Below are positions 4,892 through 58,764 of a DNA stretch of 64,000 bases, piece by piece. Under the pieces are notes generated by a model. The model did no database searches. It had not been told where the DNA came from and saw only the letters and a program-made list of their open reading frames with translations. How positions within the stretch are numbered: position 1 is the first letter of the stretch; each line of letters opens with the position of its first letter. The translations under genes were made by a program, and so were the position numbers. Location: positions 606,501 to 670,500 of the forward strand of contig JAVXUO010001037.1 of NCBI GenBank assembly GCA_033065855.1, given 5' to 3'. This DNA is from Escallonia rubra (lineage: Eukaryota > Streptophyta > Magnoliopsida > Escalloniales > Escalloniaceae).

Positions 4892-5761
4892 CTACCTGAT
4901 TGTGACAAACTTGTTGGTGCCATGTTTTGCCCAATGAGTCCTTAGATCGATTGCGTTAGCAAAGTTATACCCTTCGGCTGCAAGTTTCTCCAACACCTTC
5001 TTGAATGCACCCTGACTCATCTTCCGTCCAGCTATCCTTGCTCCACGTCTTTTGGTGCTCATAGGCAAAGGATACATTGATATGGTCGTTGTGCAGCAAG
5101 CCGATTGCCAACCGCCACAGCCCCATCGATAACACTGCTGCGGACTACCAGTGCATGAGCAAACTGGTATTGGAATACCAGAAATATCCATATCGATCCC
5201 ATTTATTACAACATCCATATTCTTCTTCGCTGGTTTAGAGCGCTGAATAGACGAATTGCCGTTTTCCTTCGGAACAGAAGGGCCCTTCTTTGGCTTCTTT
5301 GCTTTCGGGGCTTTTGGGGTAGCACCAGCTGACCTTCTCTTCATTGGGCCACCTCCTTCCTTCCTAACACCTGGATCTTCCAGACTCACCCTTGGATCCT
5401 TTAATGGCTCAGGTGGCGGTAATATCTGCATGGAATGCGTCCCAGAAGGTTCAGGTAGTACTCCAAAGCTAGTGTTTCCCGGCAACATGTGAAGGAACTC
5501 TTTTCTAGAATTTACCCAAGTGTCCCTCATATAATCCATGTGAACAGGCGCTTCAGAGACCACACAATCTCGAGGGTGAGGGTGAGGGTGAGGGTGGGGA
5601 TGATAATTCCCATTGGCATTCACCATAACAGTGTGATCACGTCCAGAGAGGAAAGGTTTCGTGTCTCGGTCTTGCATTGTCATAAGCTGCAGACCGAGAT
5701 GCCCCTTGAGAGAAGGTTCGTAATAACCCCAATTGCGCATGTTCAATCCGTCGTCATCCAT
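4892..5761 (-). CDS. BPC: BASIC PENTACYSTEINE transcription factor, class I (GAGA-binding)
   Basis: A single coding exon gives 289 residues, close to the length of class I BPC proteins. These nuclear proteins bind GA/CT repeats in promoters and recruit repressive chromatin complexes. The N-terminus begins MDDDGLNMRNWGYYEP, the class I signature, followed by a GHLGLQLM segment. The middle has a His-Pro repeat, then a Lys/Pro-rich basic stretch (nuclear localisation). The last about 90 residues are the conserved DNA-binding domain: the Cys cluster VCSCTG, QQCYRWGC, SACCTTT (about residues 201-223), then MSTKRRGARIAGRKMSQ and the C-terminal HGTNKFVTIR. I chose the ATG at 5761, not the upstream in-frame one at 5827, because family homology starts here and a splice acceptor (TGTAG at 5767-5771) lies five bases upstream. 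No lesion is visible, so this is probably functional. Confidence 0.96.
   Translation of the reverse strand: MDDDGLNMRNWGYYEPSLKGHLGLQLMTMQDRDTKPFLSGRDHTVMVNANGNYHPHPHPHPHPRDCVVSEAPVHMDYMRDTWVNSRKEFLHMLPGNTSFGVLPEPSGTHSMQILPPPEPLKDPRVSLEDPGVRKEGGGPMKRRSAGATPKAPKAKKPKKGPSVPKENGNSSIQRSKPAKKNMDVVINGIDMDISGIPIPVCSCTGSPQQCYRWGCGGWQSACCTTTISMYPLPMSTKRRGARIAGRKMSQGAFKKVLEKLAAEGYNFANAIDLRTHWAKHGTNKFVTIR
5573..5599 (-). repeat. Hexamer repeat encoding a His-Pro run
   Basis: Four to five tandem copies of a GGGTGA/TCACCC-type hexamer lie in the BPC coding sequence and encode (His-Pro)4-5 after NGNY. Because the unit is a multiple of three, slippage would change length without breaking the frame. Confidence 0.85.
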
Positions 5762-5766
5762 CACAA

Positions 5767-6606
5767 CTACAGATCCAGGCAAACAACAAGGAAAATTAAA
5801 TCTTTTTCTGCGTTCCTGTTTACACAATTGAAGGCATTATAGCCCTCATAACTGCGGCTATAAAAACCAACAGCAGAGGAAGGCATCAAAGTATTAGTAA
5901 CAGACTATTGAACCGTCAGATAAACGGAACAGATTTCTAGGGGGGGAATCTGAACATATGGAAAGGCAGATCCGAATAGTCACACAGTGCAATGTAAATA
6001 ACAGTGTCATATGAATCTTGTAGTTTAGACAGGCACATCATATGCATTGGAATCCTAATAACAAATGCTGTAGGACAGGCAACGGCCATAAAACCACTAT
6101 TACCCGGAAATGGTAAAGCCAATGACAACAATTACATCAAGCCCACAGGACCCAAATTTAACACGCGGAAAACCACAACAAACAAATGCAGTTCCAGTGA
6201 AGCAAATTAAAATTCCAGGGTTTTGAACATAGAATCTCGTAGAAATTAAAAACCAAATTCAGATCCATTTGCGTATCATAAAAGGAAAACATCACAGATC
6301 TGTCAGAACTATTGAATCATCAACATAAATAACGGCATGCAGTAAAATTAACAACAAAAGGGTTGAAACTTGGGGGCTTTAAACATAGATCTCACTAGAC
6401 AGAAGAAAAGGGATCAGATCCGTTATAAAGATCTACAATCAGAGACAACCAATTCACATGGTAGACATTAAAATGTAGATGAAATGCCAAAAAAGAATAG
6501 AAATGGGCATATATATTCAAGACTTCAAACAGCGAAATAGGAAAGCTGAGATTTTTACAGAGAGAGGGAGAGAGAGAAAGAGAGAGAGAAGGAGGGGGGG
6601 ACTTAC
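5767..6606 (-). other. Probable 5' UTR intron of the BPC gene
   Basis: On the minus strand a consensus donor GTAAGT starts at 6606, and a pyrimidine-rich acceptor ending TGTAG lies at 5771-5767, five bases before the chosen ATG. The 840-bp stretch between is AT-rich and without coding character, as expected for a leader intron. An intron in the 5' UTR is known for plant BPC genes. The exact sites are inferred from sequence and have no transcript support here. Confidence 0.65.
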
Positions 6607-9889: not shown

Positions 9890-10029
9890 TCGCATGGATG
9901 GTAAAATAACCGTCTGTTCCATAATGGGACTGACGTCCGACCCATAATGTGGCGGACGAAGCTCACTTAAAAAAACAGATCTAGGCCGCCCACATCGATA
10001 ACGTGGACGGCCAGACTGCGCTCTCATTA
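9890..10029 (-). repeat. Dispersed repeat unit linked to a CA/TA microsatellite
   Basis: This 140-bp unit includes CCATAATGGGAC, CCGACCCATAATGTGG, GCTCACTTAAAAAA and CGATAACGTGGACGG. Its reverse complement recurs twice in tandem at 17577-17845, also ending in a dinucleotide array. The fixed association of unit and microsatellite suggests a small mobile or satellite-like family that carries its own simple-repeat end. It has no coding capacity. Confidence 0.8.

Positions 10030-10030
<1 letters not shown>

Positions 10031-10120
<90 letters not shown>
10031..10120. repeat. Compound microsatellite (CA)25 (TA)20
   Basis: Fifty bases of CA repeat pass directly into forty bases of TA repeat, then ACACATGTAC. 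It forms the end of the dispersed repeat unit at 9890-10029. Confidence 0.95.
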
Positions 10121-17548: not shown

Positions 17549-17576
17549 ATATATGTGTGCACACGCGCGCGCGTGT

Positions 17577-17860
17577 GTTTCTAATTACAGCGCGATCTGG
17601 CCTTCCACGTTATCGAGGTGGGCAGCCTAAATCTATTTTTTTAAGTGAGCTTCGTCTGCCACATTATGGGTCGGACGTCGGTCCCATTATGGAACTGAGA
17701 TACACATGTGTGTGTGTGTGTGTCTAATGACAGCGCGGTCTGGCAGACCACGTTATCGAGGTGGGTAGCCTATATCTATTTTTTAAAGTGAGCTTCGTCC
17801 CCCACATTATGGGTCGGACGCCTGTCCCATTATGGAACTGAGATACACACACACACACAT
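17577..17860 (+). repeat. Tandem pair of the microsatellite-linked dispersed repeat
   Basis: Two head-to-tail copies (17577-17704 and 17723-17846) share TCTAAT-ACAGCGCG, CACGTTATCGAGGTGGG, AAGTGAGCTTCGTC and CATTATGGGTCGGACG. Each ends in a TG or CA array (17707-17722; 17846-17860). They are the reverse complement of the unit at 9890-10029. Confidence 0.88.

Positions 17861-23814: not shown

Positions 23815-23820
<6 letters not shown>
23284..23820 (-). repeat. LTR-like fragment joined to gag
   Basis: 23284-23375 matches 17425-17510 in inverted orientation (GGCCCATCCGAACATCCACC, CTATAACTAAGTAATTTAAA). The rest, to the TA array, includes GAGTGAGCTTGAGGCCCAGTAA, resembling a motif in the LTR at 20774-21517 (about 21090). 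It looks like a truncated gypsy LTR. The gag frame reads into it, so the junction is a rearrangement. Confidence 0.5.

Positions 23821-23885
<65 letters not shown>
23821..23885. repeat. (AT)32 microsatellite
   Basis: A pure 65-bp AT array ends where the second caulimovirid cluster begins. Confidence 0.97.
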
Positions 23886-23886
<1 letters not shown>

Positions 23887-24147
23887 CAAAAGTGGGAGCG
23901 AGTCGCTTCAGGTTGTTTGCCGAGTGATGTCGTTTGAAAACCTGTAGACTAACGCATGCCCTGAGTTTTTTCAAAAAGCCCCTAGTATATTTCAAAAAAA
24001 AATGGACGATAAGGTTGTTTCGTACGTTTCATGTTCTATAGCTTCTATGCTACAAGTTGTCTAGCTATTTGTATGTTAGTACATTTTGCTACCATTCTTG
24101 GCCTGAATTTTCTAAAGGATCTACTTGGTAGGGGGGGTTAGAAAATA

Positions 24148-24260
24148 TCATAATAGTAGAATTTATAAGAACAAGATAACCTGTTTTTCCTGTGGAGAAC
24201 CAGATCATCTGAGTTCAAGTTGCCCTAGAAAACACAATAGTAGAAACTATCCTACTTGAC
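24148..24260 (+). pseudogene. Caulimovirid 2: coat-protein zinc-knuckle fragment
   Basis: One frame reads a perfect CCHC knuckle (CFSCGEPDHLSSSC) flanked by basic residues (KNKI before, PRKHNSRN after). A second copy of the same 90 bp lies at 25845-25935. The rest of the coat protein is absent. Confidence 0.75.
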
Positions 24261-24297
24261 TACTTTGTGTTAAAAGTAGTACAGACTAAAATGTTTT

Positions 24298-24560
24298 TTC
24301 CTTGTTGAAAATTCTCATATCCTCTAGTCATAATTTTAATTTTAATGTTTTTAGCAAAGTCTCTAGTATTTATACAAAAATCTGGTGCACAATAAAATAT
24401 GCCACCATTGTTGTTCATATCTACTTCTATAGCTCCTAGTATTGTTTGTTCACTAGAGAATCTATCGTCTGTAATAGCTAGGAATACTTTAGCTCCTGTA
24501 TCTCTTCTAGTTAATTCTTTTATGCCTATTACGATTAAACCAATATGAGTTAAGTTAATC
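24298..24560 (-). pseudogene. Caulimovirid 2: movement-protein fragment, copy 1
   Basis: It is nearly identical to 26097-26334 in the same orientation and covers the end of the movement-protein core, including the VDMNNN-GG-FYCAPDF-like box. The match stops abruptly at about 24553, where sequence changes to RT-derived pieces (for example 24620-24660 repeats part of the YIDD region). One of three movement-protein pieces in the cluster. Confidence 0.8.
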
Positions 24561-24689
24561 CACGCTCACCGCACCAACCACCTTTAGCAAATCTTAATAT
24601 AGAAGACAGTTGTACCCATGAATGGGAAATAGGAAGTTTAAATAGATGATATTCTGATATGTAGTAAAAATGATACTATTTAAAGTCAG

Positions 24690-25700
24690 GTTTTTATCAG
24701 ATTAAAATGTGGCTAGAAGACACCAGATGGACCGCATTTATTACTCCAGAAGGATTATATGAGTGGCTAGTTATGCCCTTTGGCCTTAAGACAGCCCCTA
24801 GTATATTCCAAAGAAAAATGGACGATATTTTTAGACCATACAATGATTTTATTCTAGTTTACATAGATGATATTCTGATATGTAGTAAAAATGATACTGA
24901 ACATATAGCACATTTAGATCTAGCCTTTAAGCTTTTTAAAAAACATGGTTTAATTTTAAGTAAAAAGAAAATAGAATTTTTTAAAACTAATGTCAAGTTT
25001 TTAGGAATGGAAATAGGAAACGGTAAAATTAAGCTACAATAACATATAACTAAAAAGATTCTAGACTTTCCAGATAAATTAGAAGGACTTAAACAAATAC
25101 AAGCCTTTTTAGGACTAGTAAATCAAGCTATAATATATTTTAAAGACCTTAGCAAATTATTAGGACCTTTGTATAACAAAACTTGTAAAACAGGTCAAAG
25201 ACATTTTAATGCAGAAGACATTAAATTAATTAAAGATATAAAAAATAGAGTAAGACAACTTCCTGATTTACACTTACCGTTAGCTACAGATTATTTAATC
25301 ATCCAAACCGATGGTTGTAAAGAAGGATGGAGAGCAATCTTTGTACTGCAAACCCAATAAGTACAGTCATAAGAAAGATGAACGAGTTTGTAGATACGCC
25401 AGTGGTAAGTATAAAGAAAGTAATCAATATTTAACCAGTTTAGATTATGAATTACTAGCAATAGTTTATGCCTTAGAACATTTCAAAGCTCTTTTAATTT
25501 CAAAGCATGAATTCTGTATTAGAACAGACTGTGAAGCCATAGTTAGATATAACAAAAACAAAGACTCTAGATATACAAATAGATGGCTAAAGTTTATGAC
25601 ATTTTTAAGTAATTATAGAATAGATAAAATAGAATGGCAGCATGTCAAACAAGTAGATAATTCTATTGCTGATTTATTATCTAGAAAGATTTTATCTTAA
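24690..25700 (+). pseudogene. Caulimovirid 2: reverse transcriptase and RNase H
   Basis: The frame 24707-25042 reads FITPEGLYEWLVMPFGLKTA, SIFQRKMDDIF and YIDDILICS, then the RT thumb continues past a stop at 25040-25042 (QIQAFLGLVNQAI). RNase H follows at 25280-25700: a TDG near 25309, then after a frameshift near 25330 KPNKYSHKKDERVCRYASG, LTSLDYELLAIVYALEHF, IRTDCEAIV and a final IADLLSRK. The YIDD and the RNase H acidic residues are kept. The fingers are truncated at the left end. One stop and one frameshift make this a pseudogene, but it is the best preserved pararetroviral pol here. Confidence 0.9.
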
Positions 25701-26096
25701 GATAATCCCATACAATTAGCAATAGAATCAGACAAGTTTCTTGTTTTATTACAGATGGCATCATGTTCTCAGAACAGGTTCACTCAAACCACTAGTTTCA
25801 GACCTCAACTAAACCAAACAAGCCCGGCATTTCCTTCTCTTTATAGAATTTATAAGAACAAGATAACCTATTTTTCCTGTGGAGAACCAGATCATATGAG
25901 TTAAAGTTGCCCTAGAAAACACAATAGTAGAAACTTTAAAGCTTTAAAGTCTTCCGCATCTAAACTACTTGCTTCTACTACTCCAGAAGGATTATATGAG
26001 TGGCTTGTTATGCCCTTTGGCCTTAAGACAACCCCTAGTTCCGCCACCTTTAGCAAATCTTAATATAGAAAACAGTTGTACCCATGAAAAATAGAT
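25701..26096 (+). other. Mosaic of short caulimovirid pieces
   Basis: After the RNase H stop this contains MASCSQNRFTQTTSFRPQ-like coding, a second zinc knuckle (about 25860-25915, with one in-frame stop just after it), then a direct jump into EGLYEWLVMPFGLKT of RT (25986-26035) and a short piece shared with 24585-24625. These joins between non-adjacent viral regions indicate recombination or end-joining of fragments. Confidence 0.7.
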
Positions 26097-26713
26097 CCTC
26101 TAGTCATAATTTTAATTTTAATGTTTTTAGCAAAGTCTCTAGTATTTATACAAAAATCTGGTGCACAATAAAATATGCCACCATTGTTGTTCATATCTAC
26201 TTCTATAGCTCATAGTATTGCTTGTTCACTAGAGAATCTATCGTCTATAATAGCTAGGAATACTTTAGCTCCTGTATCTCTTCTAGTTAATCCTTTTATG
26301 CCTATTACGATTAAACCAATATGAGTTAAGTTAAAATCTCCTCTAACTAATTCTTGTTCAGAATCTGGATGGATTAAATTTACGCTTACTACATCTTCTC
26401 CAATACATCTATTTTGTGTTTCTCTATAATGCATAAATAATCTTGTTTGGCTTAAAGTGGAATTACGTTGATATAACACTTGTGGAGAAGTTAAATCTAG
26501 TATATTTTGTCTAAATTGTTCAATTTTTCTATCTATATCTATTATTTGTTCTAGTGAGGCTATAGGTGCAGGTGAATTTCTAAATATCCTAAGAACTCTA
26601 TTTCCTATTGTATTTTCATTTCTTCTTCTTGTCTCAGTAGCTAATACTTCTGTTCTATTTATATCTTCTATGTTTCCTCTTCCTAAAATGTGCCTACTGT
26701 TGTTTCTTATCAT
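26097..26713 (-). pseudogene. Caulimovirid 2: movement protein, copy 2
   Basis: The minus-strand frame starts MIRNNSRHILGRGNIED, runs through LSQTRLFMHYRE, LTHIGLIVIGIKGLTRRDT and KVFLAIIDDRF, and after a TGA at 26210-26212 continues with EVDMNNNGGIFYCAPDF. This is the 30K-type movement protein (plasmodesmal transport) of Caulimoviridae. An inverted copy lies at 28136-28726. The start overlaps the end of the upstream ORF by about 17 bp in both copies. Confidence 0.85.
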
Positions 26714-27107
26714 AGACTACAAACTTCCAATTGTTTGGGGTCTTACTAGTTTTGGATTTGTCTATTGTAATGTTATCTAATCTTTTGCATAAATTTTCTA
26801 TATCTAAGCCACCATTGTTTTCTTGATATATCAGAACTATATGGTGTCTTAATAGTTTTTCTAAATATTCGTTCATTCTTCGAGTAAAATAGTCTAAATT
26901 TACAAAATATCTAAGATAAGTAGCAAGAGGATTTCTAACAAGTCTAAATTTTCCAGAGTCTAAATTAGCTATAATTCTATCATTGGTATAATTTATGAAA
27001 TTTAAAGCAGAATAAAATTCATTAAATGCTACAATATCTACTTCATATTCTTCATTATCTTCAGTATAACAACTGTAAAAGGTAGGATTTGCAGGACGTC
27101 TGTTCAT
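26697..27107 (-). pseudogene. Caulimovirid 2: ORF upstream of the movement protein
   Basis: An open frame of 137 residues begins MNRRPANPTFYSCYTEDNEE, about 95 bases downstream of the primer site, and ends KFVVYDKKQQ, overlapping the movement-protein start in another frame. It has no stop in its length. I recognise no domain. In some caulimovirids the movement protein is one longer ORF, so it could be the N-terminal part separated by a -1 shift; but the same overlap occurs in both inverted copies, which favours a genuine two-ORF arrangement in the parent virus. Confidence 0.6.
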
Positions 27108-27200: not shown

Positions 27201-27214
27201 TGGCTCTGATACCA
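27201..27214 (-). promoter_or_regulatory. tRNA-Met primer binding site of caulimovirid 2
   Basis: The minus strand reads TGGTATCAGAGCCA, the initiator tRNA-Met complement that marks the start of minus-strand DNA synthesis in Caulimoviridae. It lies about 95 bases upstream of ORF 27107 in the correct orientation. The inverted copy to the right lacks this part. Confidence 0.85.
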
Positions 27215-27424
27215 AAATGGAGGGGGGTTGAGCCGGAAAACAAAAGTCCCCAGTTAGACCTTTACCATAGTGGATGATAGCATAGCACAGATGCAGACAC
27301 AACGGAATAGAGAGAAGATTTCAGAGAAAATATGGCAAAAACTAAGATCAAAGAGAGAGTCTGTTTTTGAGTTTTAAAATTTCAAGATGTCGGTTTTGAA
27401 CTATCAGAGTATATCTTTCTAGAA

Positions 27425-27510
27425 AAACTCAGGGCATGCGTTAGTCTACAGGTTTTCAAATGCCATCACTCGGCAAACAACCTTAAGCGACTCGCTCCCA
27501 CTTTTGTTAA
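27425..27510. repeat. 86-bp inverted copy of 23886-23975
   Basis: GGGCATGCGTTAGTCTACAG and CTCGGCAAACAACCTTAAGC here match the reverse complement of 23886-23975. The two lie near the two outer sides of the RT/movement-protein block, about 3.5 kb apart, and belong to the viral leader region. Confidence 0.85.
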
Positions 27511-27616
27511 ATCCTTAGGATAGCCATGATAGTTCGTTGAAAAAGCATAATCATTTTAAAAAATCGACAGAGTCTTTCTGGAGCCAAGTAAATGCCATAT
27601 GATCTCTAAATCTTGA

Positions 27617-27626
27617 CTATATAAAG
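27617..27626 (+). promoter_or_regulatory. TATA box in the left arm, facing right
   Basis: CTATATAAAG on the plus strand. Transcription starting about 30 bp downstream would cross the palindrome and continue into the plus-strand movement-protein copy at 28136. Called from sequence only. Confidence 0.55.
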
Positions 27627-28073
27627 TTGTTTCTTGTCATGCTAGACCTGAGATAATTTCTTTCAATTCATAGAATGCTTTTCACCGCTAGAGCGTTTTC
27701 ACCCCAGAATAATTAAGAGCTGAGTAGAGAAAATGAACTTACTTGAAAGCTAAAGAAAAGAGAGATTGCTGAGAACTTGAGGAATTTTAAGATAGAACGT
27801 TGAGAAACATTCACAGAGAGAGACTGTCTCTCAATTAAATCTAAGAGACTTTCTCTCAAACTCTCTCTCTGTGTGTGTGTGTGTGTGTGAATGTTTCTCA
27901 ACGTTCTATCTTAAATTCCTCAAGTTCTCAGCAATCTCTCTTTTCTTTAGCTTTCAAGTAAGTTCATTTTCTCTACTCAGCTCTTAATTATTCTGGGGTG
28001 AAAACGCTCTAGCGGTAAAAAGCATTCTAGGAATTGAAAGAAATTATCTGAGGTCTAGCATGACAAGAAACAA

Positions 28074-28083
28074 CTTTATATAG
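28074..28083 (-). promoter_or_regulatory. TATA box in the right arm, facing left
   Basis: This is the mirror copy of the box at 27617. On the minus strand it would drive a transcript across the palindrome, past the primer site at 27214 and into the minus-strand ORFs. A TATA-to-primer-site distance of about 860 bp suits a long caulimovirid leader. Confidence 0.55.
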
Positions 28084-28135
28084 TCAAGATTTAGAGATCA
28101 TATGGCATTTACTTGGCTCCAGAAAGACTCTATCT

Positions 28136-28726
28136 ATATAGAAAATTTATGCAAAAGATTAGATAACATTACAATAGACAAAACCAAAACTAGTAAGACC
28201 CCAAACAATTGGAAGTTTTTAGTCTATGATAAGAAACAACAGTAGGCACATTTTAGGAAGAGGAAACATAGAAGATAGAAATAGAACAGAAGTATTAGCT
28301 ACTGAGACAAGAAGAAGAAATGAAAATACAGTAGGAAATAGAGTTCTTAGGAAATTTAGAAATCCACCTGCACCTATAGCCTCACTAGAACAAATAATAG
28401 ATATAGATAGACAAATTGAACAATTTAGACAAAATAGACTAGATTTAATTTCTCCACAAGTGTTATATCAACGTAATTCCGCTTTAAGCCAAACAAGATT
28501 ATTTATGCATTATAGAGAAACACAAAATAGATGTATAGGAGAAGACGTAGTAAGCGTAAATTTAATCCATCCAGATTCTGAACAAGAATTAGTTAGAGGA
28601 GATTTTAACTTAACTCATATTGGTTTAATCGTAATAGGCATAAAAGGATTAACTAGAAGAGATACAAGAGCTAAAGTATTCCTAGCTATTATAGACGATA
28701 GATTCTCTAGTGAACAAGCAATACTA
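28136..28726 (+). pseudogene. Caulimovirid 2: movement protein, copy 3 (inverted)
   Basis: This is a plus-strand copy of 26216-26806 with few substitutions. The frame from 28226 reads MIRNNSRHILGRGNIEDRNR to the FLAIIDDRF box and then, at 28727, runs out of viral homology into the 64-bp repeat. The left edge joins directly to the palindrome arm, skipping the primer site and most of the upstream ORF that copy 2 still has. Confidence 0.88.
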
Positions 28727-28876
28727 GAAAAACTTGTCCTTTGCTTTATCAAAGCTTGTCTACTTTTGCCGAGAAGTCTTCTTTCTTCTAGAAAAACTTG
28801 TCCTTTGCTTTATCAAAGCTTGTCTACTTTTGCCGAGAAGTCTTCTTTCTTCTAGAAAAAACTTGTCCTTCGCTTT
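28724..28876. repeat. 64-bp tandem repeat, 2.4 copies
   Basis: Units start at 28724, 28788 and 28852 with CTAGAAAAACTTGTCC and contain TTGCCGAGAAGTCTTC. It links the movement-protein copy to the viroplasmin palindrome. Confidence 0.93.
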
Positions 28877-29097
28877 ATTAGATGTAATCCGTCTTTTTGT
28901 CTATATGTCTCTTAGTCTTCTGTCTTCAAGTCTTCTGAAGAACTGCTTGAAGATTCCTCTATGCTGACAAGGCTATTGCTAGGTCCTTGTAAGTCTTGGA
29001 ACAAACTATCTGTTGTAGCCGATCCTTCTGGCTCTAGAGTTTTGAATGTTTTGCTGACTAATTCAGCAAAGGCTTCTGCTAATTTCTTCTGAATAAC

Positions 29098-30030
29098 CTA
29101 GGCTTGCCTCTTTGCCTTTTTCTTCATTTGTCTTCTAAGTTCCGTTTTACCCAAACGGACAGGGGTCTCAGGATTTGAAGTATCTTTACCAGCTACCTGT
29201 AGGGCTGGACTAGGATTACTATCTCCTGTAATCAAAGGATTTTTAGTGTTTTTAAGTAAAACACCAACTGTAAAAGGACTTGATAAGTCTTTACCGGTAG
29301 CCTGTGAAACCGGACTAGGAGTTTTTTCTCCTGAAGTCTCAGATTTTTCAAAAATTTTAAGCAAATTTTCAGCTTTAACAGGACCTGTTTTGTCTTTACT
29401 GGCTGCCTATGATGCTGGACTAGCTATTCCTTTAACCTAGGAGATAGAGAGTTGTGACGACTGGTGTTTAGAAAGAAGATTGGTGTATCTATTTTTCCAG
29501 TCGTTGGCCTATAATTCTAACACTTGTGTATGGGTTCTAAGTTGGGCAATTTGCTGGTCAAAATTTTCCTTTTCTAAAGCTAAATGGTATGTCCTACTTT
29601 TTAAAATGTTAGAATGCCTAATAAGTGTATTGCAGTTTTGACAATCTGCATTACTGTCTGAAGAAGAAGAATGTTCTTGGCATTCAGGACTAATATAGTA
29701 GTTTGCTCCATAATGTGTTTGCATAAGAGTATTGGCCTCAGAAAAAGTAAGGGTTCCTTTGTACCATGGTTGAAGATGATTTCCTACACCACCAACCATT
29801 GCCTCTGGGAAATGTTTATGAATGCCTGGAATGGCACCCTTAACAACACAATAAAAATTATACCTTTTTGTTTCTCTAAGTTTATGAAAATAATGAGCTA
29901 AAGCATTAAGGGTGTTTACAAACCACCCGTTGTCTTTCTTTAAAAAAGATTGCCATAAATTATCTAAAAGGGCATTTTGATCATCAGGAAAAGGTCCGAT
30001 TTTAGATAATTTATCTAAAAACCCTAAAAT
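29098..30030 (-). pseudogene. Caulimovirid 2: viroplasmin/transactivator, left copy
   Basis: The minus-strand frame reads DNGWFVNTLNALAHYFHKLR, YNFYCVVKGAIPGIHKHFPE, VGNHLQPWYKGTLTF and ANTLMQTHYGANYYISPE. The pattern Y-x-V-x-x-G-x-x-PGI...W/F-PEA...KG-x-x-F-x-x-x-EA is the viroplasmin fold of caulimovirid transactivator (inclusion-body) proteins, which permit reinitiation of translation. A stop at 29509-29511 precedes a Ser/Pro/Lys-rich tail (29364-29098) ending in a basic KTELRRQMKKKAKRQ. Confidence 0.82.
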
Positions 30031-30039
30031 CGGAAAAGA

Positions 30040-31068
30040 TTGCCATAAATTATCTAAAAACCCTAAAATCAGACTTTTTCCTGATGACCAAAAGGCCCTT
30101 TTAGATAATTTATGGCAATCTTTTTTAAAGAAAGACAACGGGTGGTTTGTAAACACCCTTAATGCTTTAGCTCATTATTTTCATAAACTTAGAAAAACAA
30201 AAAAGGTATAATTTTTATTGTGTTTTTAAGGGTGCCATTCCAGGCATTTATAAACATTTCCCAGAGGCAATGGTTGGTGGTGTAGGAAATCATCCTCAAC
30301 CATGGTACAAAGGAACCCTTACTTTTTCTGAGGCCAATACCCTTATGCAAACACATTATGGAGCAAACTACTATATTAGTCCTGAATGCCAAGAACATTC
30401 TTCTTCTTCAGACAGTAATACAGATTGTCAAAACTGCAATACACTTATTAGGCATTTTAACATTTTAAAAAGTAGGACATACCATTTAGCTTTAGAAAAG
30501 GCAAATTTTGACCAGCAAATTGCCCAACTTAGAACCCATACAAACTGTTAGAATTAGAGGCCAACGACTGGAAAAATAGATACACCAATCTTCTTTCTAA
30601 ACACCAGTCGTCACAACCCTCTATCTCCGGGGTTAAAGGAATAGCTAGTCTGGCATCACAGGCACCCGGTAAAGACAAAACAGGTCCTGTTAAAGTTGGA
30701 AATTTGCTTAAAATTTCTGAAAAACCTGAGAGTTCAGGAGAAAAAACTCCTAGTCCGATTTCACAGACTACCGGTAAAGGCTTATCAAGTCCTGTTACAG
30801 TTGGTGTTTTACTTAAAAACACTGAAAATACTTTGATTACCGGAGATAGTAATCCTAGTCCAGCCCTACAGGTAGCTGGTAAAGACACTTCAAATCCTGA
30901 GACCCCTATTCGTTTAGGTAAAACGGAACTTAGAAGACAAAAGAAGAAAAAGGCAAAGAGGCAAGCCCAGGTTATTCAGAAGAAAGTAGCAGAAGCCTTT
31001 GCTGAATTAGTCAGCAAAACATTCAAAACTCTAGAGCCAGAAGGATCGGCTACAACATATAGTTTGTA
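30040..31068 (+). pseudogene. Caulimovirid 2: viroplasmin/transactivator, right copy
   Basis: The plus-strand mirror of the left copy. The core frame at 30270-30551 keeps VGNHPQPWYKGTLTF and the ECQEHSSSSDSN linker, and is shifted from the segment before it by a small indel near 30210. The C-terminal frame 30704-31075 is open and ends in the basic tail, then AEAFAELVSKTFKTLEPEG. The break points differ from those of the left copy, so the two arms decayed independently after the duplication. Confidence 0.82.
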
Positions 31069-31424: not shown

Positions 31425-33040
31425 TTATAACACAGCTTACAGTACGATATTATAACTTAATACAGACTCACACATATGTCCAAAATGAACCTCCTTCTTC
31501 ACGTATGTAAAATTACCAAAATGCCCTTAGGTATACAATTACCAAAATACCCCTTTCGGACTTAAATTACCAAAATGGCCTTTCCATAAATAGAATCACT
31601 AAAATAACCTTCCTGTAAGTGAATTTATGCAAAAATACCTTTTACAGGTAGAATTACCAAAATACCCCATGTCACACTTAAATCATCAAAATGGCCTTTC
31701 CGTTAGCAAAATCACTAAAATATCCTTACCATATGCAAATCACTCAAAAATACCCTTTATGGGTAGACTTACCAATATACCCCCTTGGGGTGGTAAATTA
31801 CCAAAATACACCTGGGAGTTTTCGACACCGAAAAAATTCCAAAATATCTTAAAATACTATTTTAAGCATCCTGAAGTCATCTTTGGCCTAAAAAGTATTT
31901 TAGAAAAGTTTCGTCCGAAAATCCAGAATTGGTATCCAGACCGAGCTCTCAAGAGCCAGTTTCGCGAAAAATACTTATCGGCCTCAGAATGACCCGAAAT
32001 TTTAGAATATGGATCATATCAGTAAAATAAGAGTTGTCTATAATTTTCAGATTAAAATAAATTTATTTATTATGTTAAATAAATCCAGAATTTCTCCTAT
32101 TGATACCTTAATTTAGCATCCTTTGCGAACACAAAAAATTCCCTAAAAACTTCCAGAGCGTACGTCTCATAAAAATATCAGTGGTTGTTGTTTTGGACTT
32201 TGTCTAATTTTGGCCCTAACTATTTATAAAAATTTGTGGAAAAACTGCCTAATTAATTCCTACCTTTAGTGACAATTACAGTCACTGTTCAAATCATGGC
32301 ACCTACTATTTCACCTTCAAACACACACTCATCTTCAAGCTTCTTCCTGTCGAGACCCATTACACACACACAACTCCCAAACGCACACTTTACCATTTTT
32401 CTAACAACTAAACCTAACCTAAATCTATTCTAACACCAATCTAACATACATAAATTTCACATACATGTTCCATTACCCATAAGCATCCATACCCGAAGCT
32501 CACACACAGTAAACACGCACCAAAGGCACACTATGCACGTAGGAAGCACACAAACACACACTAAATTTCAAGACAGTAACGTGAAGTTATACCCTTCGGA
32601 AATTTGCACCAATTCCTCTCTTTCCTTCCTCCGATTTCCCCTGTATTTTCTTTCTTCTTCTCTGCTTCTCTGTTCTATCTTCTTTCTTGATCTTCTTTCC
32701 CTTTTTTCTTATTTGCACTTTTGCCCCCCGAATCTTCTTCCATTTATTTTATGCTTCATTATCTAATCCATATCCATTAGTTTATAATAAACTCATTAGT
32801 CATCACATAACAAAGTAGAGGTGGCTCCCAGTTAAGACCATTTCTCCAAAATTTGACACATATGCATAGTTTTCAAAATTTGCAAGATAGCCCTCTAATT
32901 TTCCAAAATTACAAAATAACCCTAAAATTTTGAAAATTACAATTTTGCCCCAAAATTATTTTAAGCTTCCATTCTCTACTAAAATCCGAGCATTGCTCAA
33001 AATTATCCCCCATTCTTTTGGAGCACATATGTTTATTTTA
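31425..33040 (-). mobile_element. LTR fragment related to element A, opposite orientation
   Basis: The reverse complement contains repeated GGGTATTTTGGTAATTT motifs (about 31500-31820 here), the spaced motif that also marks the LTRs at 37650-37950 on the plus strand. Other shared points are GCTCTTGAGAGC/GAGCTCGG near 31945 against AGCGCTCGGTCTGGACACC at 37513. The interior is AT-rich with a T/C-rich run (32620-32740). It is a partial LTR abutting plus-strand pol sequence. Confidence 0.6.
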
Positions 33041-36755: not shown

Positions 36756-38379
36756 TCTGTGTTGGGGTGTGTTCAAGTGTCCTGTGTGTGTATGGGAGTG
36801 AAGGGGGAAAAAGGAAGGGAAGTAGTCATGGGGAAGGGCTGCTAAGGGCGTGGGGAGTGGTTGTTGCCCGTGGGGGTGCAAAAAGTGGGAAAGGGGAGAG
36901 GAAGAAGAAGTGGGCAGCAGCTGGTGCTGCTGCCGTGCGGGTCCTATGCGTGGGTGCAGGGGAAAAATGGTGGAGGAAGGGAATATGAGGGAGGGGGGCT
37001 AGGTGAATGGTGAGGGAGAATGGAAATGTGGTAGAGGTGTATGTGGGTTCATAAATTGAATTGGGGGCTGAAGGGAGAATAAAATCCATGGCCAGAGTAG
37101 ATGAGACGTGACTGTGAGGAGGAAGAAGATAAACAAGATGAATAGTGTACGTTTTAATCCAAAATTAGGTGAATAGTGACCGTAAGTGTCACTAAAAGTG
37201 GAAATTAGTTGAGCAGGTTGAACACGAATTTTTAAAAGAAGTTAGGGCCATATTTAGCCAAAGTGTGAAAAATAGACCCCAGTTATTGTTAGGATACCTA
37301 TATCATGGAAAAGTTTTAGATTTTTCCAAGGTTGGGAAGAGGGTGAACGGACGCAGAAAGTTTGAAACTTTGCATTGAAATTTAAAATATCAAACGAGCA
37401 CGATTTCGCGTGAACATTTTATGAGAACCTTAGGATGTTGGGAAGTTCCATTTCCCAGGATTTTGGGTCATTCTGAAGTCGTTAGCTATTTTTGGCCGAA
37501 CGGGCTTTTAAGCGCTCGGTCTGGACACCGGTTCGGAATTTTTGGGCGAAAATTTTGTAAAATAGTTTTTAACTCAAGAATGAATTCAGGAGGCTTAAAA
37601 TAACATTTAAAGCACTTTTGAGATTTTTCTGATGTCGGGATCCCTCAGGGGATATTTTGGTAATTAGCCACCCGGAAGGGGTATTTTGGGTAATTTTCCT
37701 ATAAAATTTTGTGAATGACTTTTAGTTCTGGAAGGGGTGTAAGACACCCAAAAAGTTGTTTTAAAGTTATTTTGAGATGTTTGTTGGGGCGATGGCTACC
37801 AGGGGTATTTTGGTAATTTTCTCCTTTAAAATTTTCTGAGGGACTATTTGGTATATAATTGATGTAGTACATCTAAAAATTAGTTTTAAAGCGGTTTTGA
37901 GGTGTTGGTGGTGTAGCGGCCATCATGGGGTATTTTGGTAAATTGCCACGTTGGCGCTAAATTTTTTGGAAACTCGCGTTATTAAACGTCTAGAATGGCG
38001 GGAAGTGAGGAATGATGTTAATACGTTGAAAATAAGATGGTTGTTATCGCTAATGCGTCGATAAGGCTAGGTTAAAGATCCAATTATTGGATCGGGTTAA
38101 CTAGCTATCATAGAACGCTATGAGCGGTTAAATGGGAAGGGGTAGAATAATGAGTGCGTATATGTGGAATGATTCCTAACGAGCAGAATATTATTTGACT
38201 AGATGATGCAGTTCGTTGCGATCAGAGATTGCGAGTTGCTTCGGCTATAAGCCAATCAGGTAAGGACAATGCGGTTCTGATATGCTAATTCATTGTCTCG
38301 ATTAACATGCCATGTTGATGACGTGTTGTTGAATTCTTGTTGTTGTGATTGGATGCCGGTAGTCATTGCGACCAGTACA

Positions 38380-44541: not shown

Positions 44542-44555
44542 TGGTATTAGAGCTA
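44542..44555 (+). promoter_or_regulatory. Element B primer binding site (tRNA-Met)
   Basis: TGGTATTAGAGCTA differs from the usual initiator tRNA-Met complement TGGTATCAGAGCCA at two positions. It lies about 35 bases after the LTR end, between the LTR and gag. Confidence 0.75.
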
Positions 44556-44687
44556 TAGTTACTTAAAAGTCAGGCTAAGATCTTCAGAATTGATTAGTTT
44601 ATTTGATTTTGAAATTTGGTGTGGCCTAAACATATTTTTTCGCCTGTTCAGGTGTGATATATGGCGGGATAAAGAGAGGAAAGTACT

Positions 44688-45660
44688 GTGGGGCAGGATA
44701 CACAAGAAACTGATCCTAATTTACGGGAGATCATTGGGTTAGTTGGACGTATAGCCAATGCCCTAGAATATTGGCAAAATAATCAGCAGCACAGTCAGGT
44801 TGGTGAGAGTTCTCAGGTCAGATCCATTATAGCTACTAATGATCTGATCTTGCTTGAAAGATTTGTTAAGATTAAGCCTATTGTATTCGCGGGTAGCGCT
44901 AATTCAGATGAGGCAGAGGAATGCATAAGCAATAAGGAGAAATTACTTGAGAGAATGCATTTAACTCCTGTACAGAAAATTTCTTTGGCTACTTTTTATT
45001 TAAGTGAGGATGCGGGGTTTTGGTGGAAGACAATTGATTCAAAGTGGACATCCAGTAATGCTATAAGAACTTGGGAATTGTTTACTACTGAGTTTAATAA
45101 CAAGTATATTTTGGCAAGTGGTAGAAGAGATAGCGAATTGGCTTTCCTGCAACTTGAACAGAAAAACAAGACTGTACAAGAATATGAAAAAGAATTTACT
45201 GCTTTAGCTCGACATGCATCTTATTTGGTTGAACGTGGTGATAGAAAAGCTAAAAAGTTTGAGACTGGCTTGAATCCTGACATACAGGAAGCTATAGCAC
45301 CTCTTAATATCTTTGATTATCACGAGATTGTAGATCGGGCACTGAATATTGAGAGGACTATGAGGTTGATAAAGGGCAAAGAGGGCGCAGATAAGTTTAT
45401 CTAGTCCTCCGGTGCCACAGTGACAGGTAGGAAGATTTTCTTCTACGTCTAGTGGTAGAAAATTTTTGAGAATAGATATGAGGAGTATGCGTATGCACCA
45501 AGACCCTAGACACATGGATTTATGCCACGACCATTTATAACTGGACCGCGACCCTTACTTAGTATATACCACCTCAATAGCAGCCTGCACATGCAATTAG
45601 TCTATATTGCACTTTTTGTGGTATGACTGGGCATACCAAAGAGGTTTGTCGGAAGTGAAA
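44688..45660 (+). pseudogene. Element B gag (capsid and nucleocapsid)
   Basis: The open frame 44688-45404 contains the gypsy capsid core: KIKPIVFAGSANSDEAEE, ATFYLSEDAGFWWKTI, TTEFNNKYILASGRRDSELA and VQEYEKEFTALARHASYL. Downstream, after a stop and shifts, a zinc knuckle is seen at 45608-45649 (YCTFCGMTGHTKEVC), followed by a second damaged knuckle (CFACG, stop, GHQMRDY with Tyr for the last Cys). It forms the virus-like particle in living elements; here it cannot be made whole. Confidence 0.85.
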
Positions 45661-45697
45661 GGGGGCATGTTTTGCGTGTGGCTCATAGGGGCATCAG

Positions 45698-46417
45698 ATG
45701 AGGGATTATCCTAAGAATAGAGGATCTGTGGCTATTATTACTGGGGACGCATCTGGTACTGGTTTTAGAACAGGTGGGAGAGTGAATAAACAGACGATAA
45801 ATGTTAGAGCATTTACACTGGGACATGATAAGGTACAGGGATCGCCTGTAGTTGTTGGAGGTACTGTTCTAATTTCTGGTACTTTGGCTATAGTATTCAT
45901 TGATCCTAGCTCTACACATTTATATGTCGCATCACATTTCTTACATCATTTGCCTATGCAGTCAGAGTCTTTACCTTTTATGGTCAAAGTCAGTACCCAT
46001 GTGGGTGATTCTTTATATACAGATAGATTGTACAAAGCCTGTGAGATTAATATGAATAACCATGTGCTACATGCTAATTTGATTGCACTACCTATGCAAG
46101 AGTTGGATGTTATTTTGGGTATGAATTGGTTATCCCACAATCATGCTAGTGTTGACTGTTTTTCTAAGACTGTTACGTTTACTTTACCTGATCAATCAGT
46201 ATTTATGTATGTGGGGGATAAAAGTCCAACTGATATCCCTATTATTTCTGCCTTACGTGCTCAAAAGATACTTGATAAGGGTCGTGTGGGGTATATTGTG
46301 TATGATATTGACTGTTCGAAGGCAGTGGCTAGGCTGGAGGACATCCCTATTGTTCGGGAATATTCGGATGTATTTTCGCAACACTTAATTACTCTACCAC
46401 CGGATAGGGAGATATAA
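45698..46417 (+). pseudogene. Element B aspartic protease region
   Basis: The frame includes VFIDPSSTHLYVASHFLHHL, where the family has D-P/S-G-[SA]-T/S-H at the active site; the Gly is replaced by Ser. Further on MQELDVILGMNWLSHNHASV is the flap/second-half landmark of chromovirus proteases, and REYSDVFSQHL-x-LPPDREI leads into RT. The frame is open for 239 codons but ends in TAA before RT. Confidence 0.85.
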
Positions 46418-46429
46418 TTCGTTATTGAA

Positions 46430-47070
46430 CTTGTTTCGGGCATTGCACCTATATCCAAAGCTCCCTGCAGAATGACTCATGTTGAATTGAAAGAGTTAAA
46501 GGTACAATTACAAGATTTACTTGATAAAGGTTTTATTAGACCAAATACTTCACCTTGGGGTTCACCTGTATTATTTGTCAAGAAAAAGGATGGTACCTTA
46601 TGTCTCTGTATTGACTGCAGACAGTTAAATCAGGTAACCATAAAGAATAAATACCCATTAACCCATATCGAGGATTTGTTTGATCAGTTGCAAGGAGCTA
46701 TGATATTTTTTAAATTGGATTTGAGGTCTGGTTATCATTAGTTAAAGGTAAGGGAGGAGGGTACCCCTAAGACTGCTTTCAGGACTAAGTATGGTCATTA
46801 CGAAATTTCTAGTTATGACATTTGGGGTTACTAATGCACCCGCGGCATTTATGGATTTAATGAATCACATATTCAAACCATACTTGGATAGTTTTGTGGT
46901 AGTCTTTATTGATGATATTTTGGTTTATTTTCGGGATACTTAACAATATGCTCAGCATCTCAGACTTGTTTTGCAAATCTTACATGATAAAAAGTTGTAT
47001 GCCAAATTTTGAAAAGTGTATGTTTTGATTGGAACAATTTACTTTTCTGGAGCATATAATATCGGGTGCA
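46430..47070 (+). pseudogene. Element B reverse transcriptase
   Basis: The frame at 46472-46741 reads [37 protein letters not shown] and [11 protein letters not shown], then TAG where Gln follows in the family. Other frames continue with [12 protein letters not shown] and, near 46905-46923, FIDDILV, the catalytic box. At least three stops or shifts lie between 46739 and 47070. Confidence 0.85.
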
Positions 47071-47079
47071 TGAATATCA

Positions 47080-47769
47080 ATGGATCCGGCTAAGATTGAG
47101 GCTATACAATGTTGGAAAACGCCTTCAACAGTATCAGAGGTACGTAGTTTTTTGGGGTTAGCTAGATATTACCGTAGATTTGTTGAGGGCTTTTTTAAAA
47201 TTTCTGGTCCATTATCTCGTTTGACTAAAAAAAAAGTAACTTTTATTTGGGATGATAAATGTGAGAACAGTTTTCACGAGTTGAAACATAGATTGGTTAG
47301 TGCACCTATTTTGGTTCTGCCTAACGGGAATGATGATTTTGTAATACACAGTAATGTATCTCACAAAGGTTTGGGTTTTGTGGTTATGCAAAGAGGTAAG
47401 GTAATTGCTTATGCATCACATAAATTGAAGTCATATGAAGAGAATTATCATACCCATGATCTGGAATTAGCAGCTATTGTTTTTGCCTTGCATAAATGGA
47501 GACATTATTTGTATGAAGCAGTATTTGAGGTCTATACTGATCACCAGAGTTTAAAATATTTATTTTTGCAAAAGGAATTGAATATGAGGCAGTGTAGATG
47601 GATGAAATTATTAAGTGATTACAATTGTTCTATTTCATATCACCCGGGTAAGGCTAATGTGGTTTCTGATGCCTCAAGGCGAAAGAATGTGATTGCTAGT
47701 TTAATGCTTAAGGAATGGGATATGTTGATTGATGTGTGTGATTGGAGGTCACGTGCAACTAGAACATGA
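47080..47769 (+). pseudogene. Element B RT end and RNase H
   Basis: A 229-codon open frame reads [20 protein letters not shown], then RNase [64 protein letters not shown] and [13 protein letters not shown]. The first catalytic Asp (usually in SDAS) is Asn (AAT, 47353-47355), so the enzyme would be inactive even where the frame is open. Confidence 0.88.
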
Positions 47770-57178: not shown

Positions 57179-57259
57179 CGGTGTCCGGGGGCTCCGGGGG
57201 GTTCGCTGCCTAACCCCCCCGACCCCGACCTACCCATGGAGACATAGTGGTGTTGTACG

Positions 57260-58429
57260 GTCGAGCATTGCCCGCCAGACCCTGAGCTTACCCCAGGTGC
57301 TGCCCCGCCCTACTATGAAGACGGACCTCGACCGCAGGCCGAAGATCTTGAAGAAATTAACCTGGCTGACCCGGGCGAGGAACCTCGACTAACCTATATC
57401 GGCACGAAACTCGCCCCGGGCCGAAGAGAAGGACTGATTACTCTCCTCCGCGAATATCGTGACGTATTGGCATGGAGTTACAACGAAATGCCCGGATTAG
57501 ATCCTGCCTTGGTGACACACCATCTCAACATTGCTAATGGGTTCAGCCCTGTTCGACAGCATCCGCGAACCTTCCTCCCCGAACTCGAACTGAAGATCAA
57601 GCAAGAGATCGAACGACTTTTACAAGCTGGCTTCATTGAACCCATCACTCATCCTATCTGGTTGGCTAATGTTGTTCCTGTCCAAAAGAAGAACGGCCAA
57701 GTCCGCATTTGTATTGACTTTCGGGACTTAAACAAGGCATGCCCCAAAGACGAGTTCCCACTGCCCAACATCGACATGCTCACCAAGGCAGCTGTCAGAC
57801 ACGAAACCTTATCTTTCATGGATGGTTTCGCGGGCTACAACCAAATCCGGATGAACCCCGACGATTGTGCCAAGACAGCCTTCCACACCCCTATGGGTAA
57901 CTTTTGTTGGAAAGTCATGCCCTTCGGCCTTAAGAACGCGGGTGCAACATATCAAAGAGCAATGACAGCAATCTTCCATGACATGATACACCACACAGTG
58001 GAGGACTACGTCGACGATCTTATCATCAAATCTAAAAAGGAAAGTGAACACCTCACGGACCTTCGGGCAGTCTTTGATCGTTGTCGACAATACAACATGC
58101 AGATGAATCCGTTGAAATGTGCCTTTGGAATCTCCTCCGGCAAATTCCTCGGCTTTTTGGTCAGTCGACAGGGCATTGACATTGGCCCTTCTAAGGCCGC
58201 CTCCATCCAAGAGATGTCCCCTCCCAAGAGCACCAAACAGTTAAAGAGCTTCCTCGGCAAGGTCTCTTACCTCCGTCGATTCATCCCTGCCTTGGCCGAA
58301 CTCATCACACCCTTCCAGCACTTGACGCGCAAGAGCGCACCGTGGAGTTGGGGTGCACCCCAACAACAAGCATTCGAACAGATCAAGGTGGTTCTCATGT
58401 CACCGCAGACCATGGTCGTGCCGCAATGA
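57260..58429 (+). pseudogene. Tat reverse transcriptase
   Basis: A long frame begins before the ATG at 57467 (upstream coding reads LITLLREYRDVLAWSYNEMP). It contains EIERLLQAGFIEPI, VRICIDFRDLNKACPKDEFP, MDGFAGYNQIRM, MPFGLKNAGATYQR and YVDDLIIKSKK, all RT boxes intact, then FLGFLVSRQGIDI, FLGKVSYLRRFIPAL and WSWGAPQQQAFEQIK. It ends at a TGA (58427-58429) in frame with the RNase H. This is the best preserved gypsy RT in the window. Confidence 0.93.
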
Positions 58430-58760
58430 GGTATCCCGCTCTTGCTTTATTTGACCTCCACGCCTAGGTCCATAGGGGCATTGCTTGCTCAAGAGGTGGA
58501 TGGAGTCGAGCGCCCGATTTATTACCTCAGCCGATCAATCAGGAGCCCCGAAGCCAATTACTCTGAGCTCGAGAAGCACTGTTTAGCCTTGGTCTACGCC
58601 TCACAGAAATTCAGACATTACTTCTTGTCGTACCAGATCACACTTGTCACCAAGGCCGATCCACTACGATACATGCTCACGCGCCCTGCCCTGTCTGGCC
58701 GGCTTACTCGCTGGTTGCTGCTATTGGCCGAGTTCGGCCATGTAGCCAAGCACTCGCGGA
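58430..58760 (+). pseudogene. Tat gypsy-type RNase H (first)
   Basis: In frame after the TGA: GIPLLLYLTSTPRSIGALLA (the catalytic Asp position reads Thr-Ser-Thr), RPIYYLSRSIRSPEANYSEL, EKHCLALVYASQKFRHYFL and RLTRWLLLLAEF. In the Tat clade this domain is degenerate and the second RNase H is thought to take over. The frame is lost by a small deletion near 58745-58765, where ALADLLAFF is read in another register. Confidence 0.85.
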
Positions 58761-58764
58761 CCTC

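What the first reader, a model, noticed from the sequence alone, without database searches (positions are those of the whole stretch)
27570..28726. Two viral promoters facing each other across a 0.56-kb palindrome
The caulimovirid promoter/leader is duplicated as a near-perfect inverted repeat (arms 27570-27813 and 27887-28130), with one CTATATAAAG box in each arm pointing inward. Each predicted transcript crosses the palindrome and then enters one of two inverted movement-protein copies. Transcription from either side would give RNA with a long hairpin leader, and from both would give perfectly paired sense/antisense RNA. This could be a natural silencing locus against the related virus. The TATA call and the function are inference.
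Basis: partly seen in the sequence, partly recalled or inferred. Interest (0 to 1): 0.88.

Follow-up and report, generated by a model that had tools for sequence, protein, structure and literature searches.

The report
Inverted viral promoters in plant genome
A scrambled fossil of a plant DNA virus in a plant chromosome carries its promoter twice, as mirror images facing each other, and could make self-pairing RNA that feeds gene silencing, but this is a known type of locus and nothing shows yet that this copy is active.

Summary
A 575-nt palindrome (arms 27563-27813 and 27887-28137, 98.0% identical, 73-nt spacer) holds one CTATATAAAG per arm, the only two copies of that 10-mer in the window, both pointing inward. 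An exact tRNA-Met primer site at 27214 (-), a small ORF and a movement-protein (MP) ORF lie downstream of the right-arm TATA, which supports the promoter/leader reading. Inverted MP copies flank it. The finding omits a larger palindrome next door, 29001-31067 (1.02-kb arms, 31-nt spacer), which the left-arm promoter would transcribe as a long hairpin.

The locus is a rearranged endogenous caulimovirid of mixed-orientation fragments beside (TA)33. Where testable, inverted copies differ without coding constraint, and mismatches show no clear wobble-pair bias, so nothing shows selection for pairing. Both promoters share only about 54 nt upstream of TATA.

Rearranged inverted-repeat caulimovirids giving 22-nt siRNAs are reported for tomato and soybean (seen here only through reviews and passages). 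I call this a new member of a known kind. Hairpin potential is computed; transcription, siRNAs and antiviral function are untested. Assembly artefact is unlikely, since the pairs differ by 2-5%.

The parts
23820..23885 (.). (TA)33 simple repeat at the left edge of the viral insertion, a frequent flank of endogenous caulimovirids
   Evidence: preference reported in PMC10377300 and PMC4241990 (passages)
23881..23978 (+). leader-region fragment, inverted copy of 27415-27512 (92.9% identical)
24116..24256 (+). zinc-knuckle piece (zf-CCHC, E 5.8e-6); its part 24157-24248 is repeated at 25844-25935
24263..24565 (-). third movement-protein fragment (PF01107, E 4.2e-6)
24674..25700 (+). reverse transcriptase and RNase H pieces, broken into several frames
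   Evidence: RVT_1 E 7.2e-31, RT_RNaseH E 4.9e-14; best PDB match 8r0s_A 'Enzymatic polyprotein'
26213..26716 (-). left movement-protein copy
   Evidence: PF01107 E 0.013, below cut-off; 97.8% identical to the right copy; homologue P0001
26694..27107 (-). small open ORF downstream of the primer site, overlapping the MP start; no Pfam match
27203..27214 (-). tRNA-Met primer binding site TGGTATCAGAGC, exact (motif recalled)
27215..27562 (-). leader segment between palindrome and primer site
27563..27813 (+). left palindrome arm: core promoter and leader start, pointing right
27617..27626 (+). TATA box CTATATAAAG of the left arm
27814..27886 (.). spacer with short GA/TC palindromes and a (TG)n run
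27887..28137 (-). right palindrome arm: core promoter and leader start, pointing left
28074..28083 (-). TATA box CTATATAAAG of the right arm
28136..28726 (+). right, inverted movement-protein copy, truncated at its 5' side
   Evidence: PF01107 E 0.0074, below cut-off
28724..28878 (-). 2.4 copies of a 64-nt tandem repeat after the ORF2 stop; possible viral enhancer (inference)
29001..30018 (-). left arm of palindrome B: viral ORF2 copy (weak RNase H1 N-terminal / Cauli_VI hints only in the sister copy)
   Evidence: hints
30050..31067 (+). right arm of palindrome B: inverted ORF2 copy, 95.3% identical; recognisable viral sequence ends about 31067
   Evidence: MFE of 29001-31067 -1691.5 kcal/mol

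Best explanation
This is a rearranged endogenous caulimovirid (EPRV) captured beside a (TA)n repeat in a eudicot chromosome. Fragments of at least two genome copies, in both orientations, were joined during integration or later recombination. On the minus strand the order is ORF2, tandem repeats, core promoter, leader, primer site, small ORF, MP. On the plus strand, interleaved with it, the order is core promoter, MP, ORF2. The two promoters therefore face each other as a by-product of shuffling (structure shown; event order inferred). If either promoter fires, its RNA folds back: about 250 bp of dsRNA at the leader palindrome, and for the plus transcript reading on, about 1 kb of dsRNA at palindrome B. 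Such RNA would be a DCL2/DCL3/DCL4 substrate giving 22/24/21-nt siRNAs against the virus family (inferred from tomato and soybean). My estimates: siRNAs from the hairpins in some tissue 0.4; measurable protection against a related virus 0.1.
For: Caulimovirid-type domains: MP E 4.2e-6, RT 7.2e-31, RNase H 4.9e-14, zinc knuckle 5.8e-6; the RT piece matches PDB 8r0s_A 'Enzymatic polyprotein' at 122.8 bits, then 4ol8_A at 98 and a Ty3 entry at 95.7. Exact primer site. (TA)33 flank. Copies in both orientations. Stable folds: -444.0 kcal/mol for 575 nt against a mean of -123.7 in 20 mononucleotide shuffles, and -1691.5 for 2067 nt against -470.5 in 5. No AATAAA on the plus strand between 27650 and 29001. 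Divergence without coding constraint: pN/pS 1.23 in MP, 1.95 and 1.50 in two ORF2 segments; small counts. Precedent: PMC10377300 and PMC6256188 (passages).
Against: No RNA or small-RNA data. Shared promoter sequence reaches only about 54 nt upstream of TATA, so activity may be weak or absent. Palindrome B is more diverged than palindrome A plus MP (48 of 1015 against 18 of 841 substitutions, P 0.0035), which argues against one single event. No relative beyond one short protein was found, so the native viral order is inferred, and the leader's complementarity to the right arm is no better than shuffles (20 of 200 as good). The ORF2 assignment is weak.
Confidence: 0.72

Rival explanations
1. Inert fossil: the same rearranged EPRV (this rival differs only in the RNA part), transcriptionally silent under RNA-directed DNA methylation, giving at most low-level 24-nt siRNAs from Pol IV/RDR2, with the palindromes playing no special part.
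For: The MP, RT/RNase H and ORF2 frames are broken or truncated; only the small ORF is open from ATG to stop. Copies drift without coding constraint. Promoters share little upstream sequence. EPRVs named in PMC6256188 passages are methylated and give mainly 24-nt siRNAs. CpG observed/expected is 0.37 against 0.62-0.76 in three compared stretches of the window, though viral DNA may be CpG-poor to begin with. In palindrome B 29 of 48 differences are transitions.
Against: Inverted-repeat EPRVs are the subset reported with abundant 22-nt siRNAs in tomato (PMC10377300). Transitions do not dominate the differences in palindrome A or MP (2 of 5 and 6 of 13).
Confidence: 0.5
2. Natural silencing locus kept by selection: convergent viral promoters and hairpins are maintained because their siRNAs protect the plant from the cognate virus.
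For: Anatomy: promoter followed by long inverted repeats; arms still 98% and 95% alike, with perfect runs of about 100 nt. The idea is published for tomato (title of Valli et al. 2023; summary).
Against: The arms of palindrome A (2.0%) diverge like the MP copies (2.2%). No clear excess of G-U pairs for either strand (15 on plus RNA, 22 on minus RNA, summed over three pairs). Palindrome B, the best hairpin, is the most diverged of the three. Geering et al. 2014 argue that EPRV copy number is far above what silencing needs (passage).
Confidence: 0.1
3. Native viral leader: the long hairpin was present in the virus itself, as pregenomic leaders of caulimovirids form large stem-loops, and only the MP fragment was inserted.
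For: Needs one rearrangement fewer. Leader stem-loops were found in nearly all examined genera (PMC5902531 passages).
Against: The palindrome includes the TATA box and about 54 nt upstream of it, which lie outside the transcript. Arms are 98% paired. TATA to primer site is 869 nt, longer than the 0.6-kb leader quoted for CaMV and RTBV. Arm divergence equals that of the MP copies, as if duplicated together.
Confidence: 0.1
4. Assembly artefact: a false palindrome from chimeric or misassembled reads.
For: Palindromes are error-prone in assemblies (recalled); no reads were available here.
Against: Artefact palindromes should be near-identical. Here the pairs differ by 2.0%, 2.2% and 4.7%, two of the three with indels, and are flanked asymmetrically. 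Of 8 inverted pairs of 100 nt or more within 10 kb in the window, 6 lie in the viral locus.
Confidence: 0.04

Closest known systems
Tomato TSAs: rearranged endogenous pararetroviruses with inverted repeats (Valli, Gonzalo-Magro and Sanchez 2023; paper not held, known here through section 3.5 of the review PMC10377300)
   Same: Rearranged caulimovirid fragments in inverted-repeat conformation with potential for hairpin RNA
   Different: There, 22-nt siRNAs and silencing of matching transcripts are reported. Here neither is tested. Whether TSAs carry facing promoters was not seen.
Caulimovirid- and TE-derived inverted repeats of soybean feeding DCL2 (cited in PMC10377300; I take this to be Jia et al. 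2020, not held)
   Same: Viral inverted repeats as hairpin siRNA source
   Different: No small-RNA data here; the host is another, asterid-like eudicot
Inverted repeat of cucumber mosaic virus RNA1 in soybean (da Fonseca et al. 2016, described in passages of PMC6256188)
   Same: Endogenous viral inverted repeat downstream of a promoter
   Different: RNA virus source; there a copia retrotransposon promoter, here the virus's own core promoter
Pregenomic-RNA leader hairpin and 8S RNA decoy of CaMV and RTBV (passages of PMC5902531)
   Same: Leader with short upstream ORFs ahead of a tRNA-Met primer site
   Different: That stem-loop is native and lies downstream of the promoter; here the promoter itself is duplicated and inverted
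Endogenous florendoviruses (passages of PMC4241990)
   Same: Fragmented insertions next to (TA)n repeats; a second large ORF
   Different: Genus not established; a separate small ORF precedes MP here, and one ORF2 copy has a weak Cauli_VI hint

Membership tests
Endogenous caulimovirid (EPRV) | Caulimovirid MP plus RT-RNase H domains | tested here: met
   PF01107 E 4.2e-6, RVT_1 7.2e-31, RT_RNaseH 4.9e-14; PDB 8r0s_A best match
Endogenous caulimovirid (EPRV) | tRNA-Met primer binding site before the first ORF | tested here: met
   Exact TGGTATCAGAGC at 27214 (-), ATG at 27107
Endogenous caulimovirid (EPRV) | Chromosomal location, often beside (TA)n, without an integrase of its own | tested here: met
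   (TA)33 at 23820-23885; host BPC gene at 4895-5836 in the same window; no integrase match in the 14 viral pieces scanned with Pfam
TSA-type inverted-repeat EPRV | Rearranged EPRV in inverted-repeat conformation | tested here: met
   Two palindromes and inverted MP copies
TSA-type inverted-repeat EPRV | Transcription of the inverted repeat | not testable with these tools
   No RNA data; TATA boxes only
TSA-type inverted-repeat EPRV | High density of 22-nt siRNAs (DCL2) that silence matching transcripts | not testable with these tools
   No small-RNA data
Florendovirus | ORF1 polyprotein with MP, CP zinc finger, AP, RT, RNase H1 | tested here: inconclusive
   MP, zinc knuckle, RT and RNase H found; no AP among the 14 pieces scanned; locus scrambled; a small ORF precedes MP
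Florendovirus | ORF2 product without homologues | tested here: inconclusive
   One ORF2 piece has Cauli_VI E 0.0092 (below cut-off) and a weak RNase H hit E 0.025; the other copy none
Native caulimovirid leader hairpin | Stem-loop lies within the transcribed leader, downstream of TATA | tested here: not met
   Arms begin about 54 nt upstream of TATA

The most novel reading that the evidence does not exclude
A self-contained RNA-interference gene built by chance from one virus: its own core promoter, duplicated head-on, drives both sense/antisense leader RNA and a 1-kb ORF2 hairpin, so that infection or stress that activates the viral promoter would switch on siRNAs against that same virus. Known inverted-repeat EPRVs would then include a self-triggered, promoter-matched form.
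Probability: 0.1. Interest if true: 0.7.

Novelty: new member of a known kind. Interest (0 to 1): 0.36.

Why it matters
If the locus is transcribed, it would extend inverted-repeat EPRV silencing beyond tomato and soybean to another eudicot host, and would give a case where the viral promoter itself, duplicated face to face, feeds the hairpin. It would also make the question whether EPRVs act as heritable antiviral memory testable at one defined place. If silent, it is one more scrambled viral fossil.

Tried and rejected
Relatives: scans of IMG/VR with two MP pieces, one ORF2 piece, one RT piece and an MP alignment found none; these reach mostly close relatives. An 18-base TATA-region pattern hit two viral contigs; my follow-up read one file, L001.fa, and showed only a 25-nt match at the pattern itself (listed once per arm) and no MP, so I treat it as chance. 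Protein search with MP gave 1 hit of 25 candidates, a 96-aa piece on a 408-bp contig labelled Vibrio europaeus, probably contamination; ORF2 gave 0 of 88.

Native leader hairpin: complementarity between the right arm and the leader is no better than chance (-72.4 kcal/mol; 20 of 200 shuffles as good or better), so no native shunt stem could be placed and the test does not tell which arm is original. ORF2 structure prediction was too poor to use (mean pLDDT 40.5), so no fold search was run. Rfam and tRNA scans of the window found nothing. The bacterial promoter scan does not apply to plants. The ORF2 piece had no convincing PDB match. In the coding test the last ORF2 segment was dropped because each of its frames had stops in at least one copy.

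Literature: 9 full-text searches listed no title or abstract on facing EPRV promoters. I read sections 3.1 and 3.5 of PMC10377300 whole and otherwise passages only. The papers of Jia, Schmidt and Valli are not held.

Full report
What was checked. The palindrome is real. Arms 27563-27813 and 27887-28137 are 98.0% identical after reverse complementing (5 substitutions, 2 one-base gaps in 252 columns), with a 73-nt spacer carrying short GA/TC palindromes and a TG run. The longest exact inverted match is 104 nt around this palindrome and 120 nt in the locus, against at most 20 nt in 100 mononucleotide shuffles. CTATATAAAG occurs twice in 64 kb, once per arm, pointing inward.

Identity. Pieces of the locus match caulimovirid-type domains: MP (E 4.2e-6 for the piece at 24263-24565; the two larger copies score below the curated cut-off, E 0.0074 and 0.013), RVT_1 (7.2e-31), RT_RNaseH (4.9e-14), zinc knuckle (5.8e-6). 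The RT piece matches PDB 8r0s_A 'Enzymatic polyprotein' at 122.8 bits, then 4ol8_A at 98 and a Ty3 entry, 7q5b_A, at 95.7; that the first name denotes the caulimovirus pol protein is recalled. An exact TGGTATCAGAGC lies at 27214-27203 (-). It is followed by a small ORF from ATG 27107 and then MP, whose start codon overlaps the small ORF's end; the homologue P0001 begins at the same Met. The insertion abuts (TA)33 on the left, a known preference of endogenous caulimovirids (PMC10377300 section 3.1; PMC4241990 passages). The genus is not settled: no relative was found in IMG/VR, and only one of the two ORF2 copies gives weak hints of an RNase H1 N-terminal domain.

Architecture. Reading the minus strand: ORF2 (from about 30171 to 28915, with breaks), 64-nt tandem repeats (28878-28724), core promoter (28137-27887), leader, primer site, small ORF, MP. 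Reading the plus strand: core promoter (27563-27813), MP (28136-28726), ORF2 (30050-31067). So two antiparallel viral orders interleave. A third MP fragment, a zinc-knuckle piece and its repeat, and RT repeats lie to the left. At 28724-28727 the third MP fragment and the tandem-repeat unit share CTAG (the left MP copy has CTAT there), compatible with microhomology joining (inference). Of 8 inverted pairs of at least 100 nt within 10 kb in the whole window, 6 lie in this locus, three of them parts of palindrome B.

The larger palindrome. 29001-31067 has arms of about 1.02 kb, 95.3% identical, and a 31-nt spacer. It folds at -1691.5 kcal/mol against a mean of -470.5 for 5 mononucleotide shuffles; the reported palindrome folds at -444.0 against -123.7 for 20. 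The left-arm promoter points at it from 1.4 kb away, and no AATAAA lies between on that strand, though plant poly(A) signals are loose (recalled). By anatomy this, more than the promoter palindrome, is the likely hairpin source.

Are the arms maintained? Between MP copies 9 of 11 coding differences by Nei-Gojobori counting are nonsynonymous (pN/pS 1.23, 168 codons); two ORF2 segments give 1.95 (49 codons) and 1.50 (114 codons); the last ORF2 segment was dropped because of stops. Numbers are small, but there is no sign of coding constraint, so the copies seem to have drifted after duplication in the chromosome. Palindrome A (2.0%) and MP (2.2%) diverge alike; palindrome B (4.7%) more so (48 of 1015 against 18 of 841, Fisher P 0.0035), which suggests more than one event. 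Mismatches give G-U pairs in plus RNA 15 times and in minus RNA 22 times over the three pairs, no clear bias. Nothing here shows selection to keep the hairpins. At a plant neutral rate near 7e-9 per site per year (recalled), 2% and 4.7% would mean roughly 1.5 and 3.4 million years.

Promoter strength. Shared sequence extends only about 54 nt upstream of TATA on each side. Beyond it the left promoter has antisense leader and the right promoter has antisense MP upstream. Each therefore keeps a core promoter at best. The tandem repeats about 640 nt upstream of the right TATA might act as an enhancer (inference).

Known kind. The review PMC10377300 (section 3.5 read in full) reports that Valli et al. 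found rearranged tomato caulimovirids in inverted-repeat form with dense 22-nt siRNAs able to trigger degradation of matching transcripts, and that soybean caulimovirid- and TE-derived inverted repeats feed DCL2-dependent 22-nt RNAs. PMC9124383 (passages) links tomato EPRVs to DCL2-dependent 22-nt RNAs. In my 9 full-text searches I saw no title or abstract on facing EPRV promoters, but the main papers are not held, so this is weak evidence of absence.

Verdict. Structure and viral origin are well supported; hairpin siRNAs from this copy I put at 0.4 and protective function at 0.1.

Noticed in passing
29001-31067: A palindrome with about 1.02-kb arms made of two inverted ORF2 copies, larger than the reported one.
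   Followed up: yes
28724-28878: 2.4 copies of a 64-nt tandem repeat just after the ORF2 stop, possibly the viral enhancer.
   Followed up: partly
26694-27107: Small ORF between primer site and MP, overlapping the MP start codon; no Pfam match, perhaps a lineage marker.
   Followed up: partly
P0001 (protein): A 96-aa MP homologue (77-78% identical) on a 408-bp contig labelled Vibrio europaeus, probably plant or viral contamination of a bacterial assembly.
   Followed up: partly
4895-5836: BASIC PENTACYSTEINE (GAGA-binding) gene. Best named relatives by score are a Tanacetum protein (62% identical) and proteins of Davidia, Camellia, Nyssa and Diospyros (76-80%), so the host looks like an asterid-like eudicot (inference).
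   Followed up: partly
44542-47766: LTR retrotransposon pieces (gag, protease, RNase H) preceded by a one-mismatch tRNA-Met primer site.
   Followed up: no
57248-60750: Reverse transcriptase and integrase of another retrotransposon in a GC-rich stretch.
   Followed up: no
9913-10057, 17554-17698, 17707-17841: Inverted repeat copies, 85-90% alike, outside the viral locus.
   Followed up: no
31537-31783: 115-bp tandem repeats right of the viral insertion; 31756-32291 has an inverted copy at 37170-37705 (69%).
   Followed up: no
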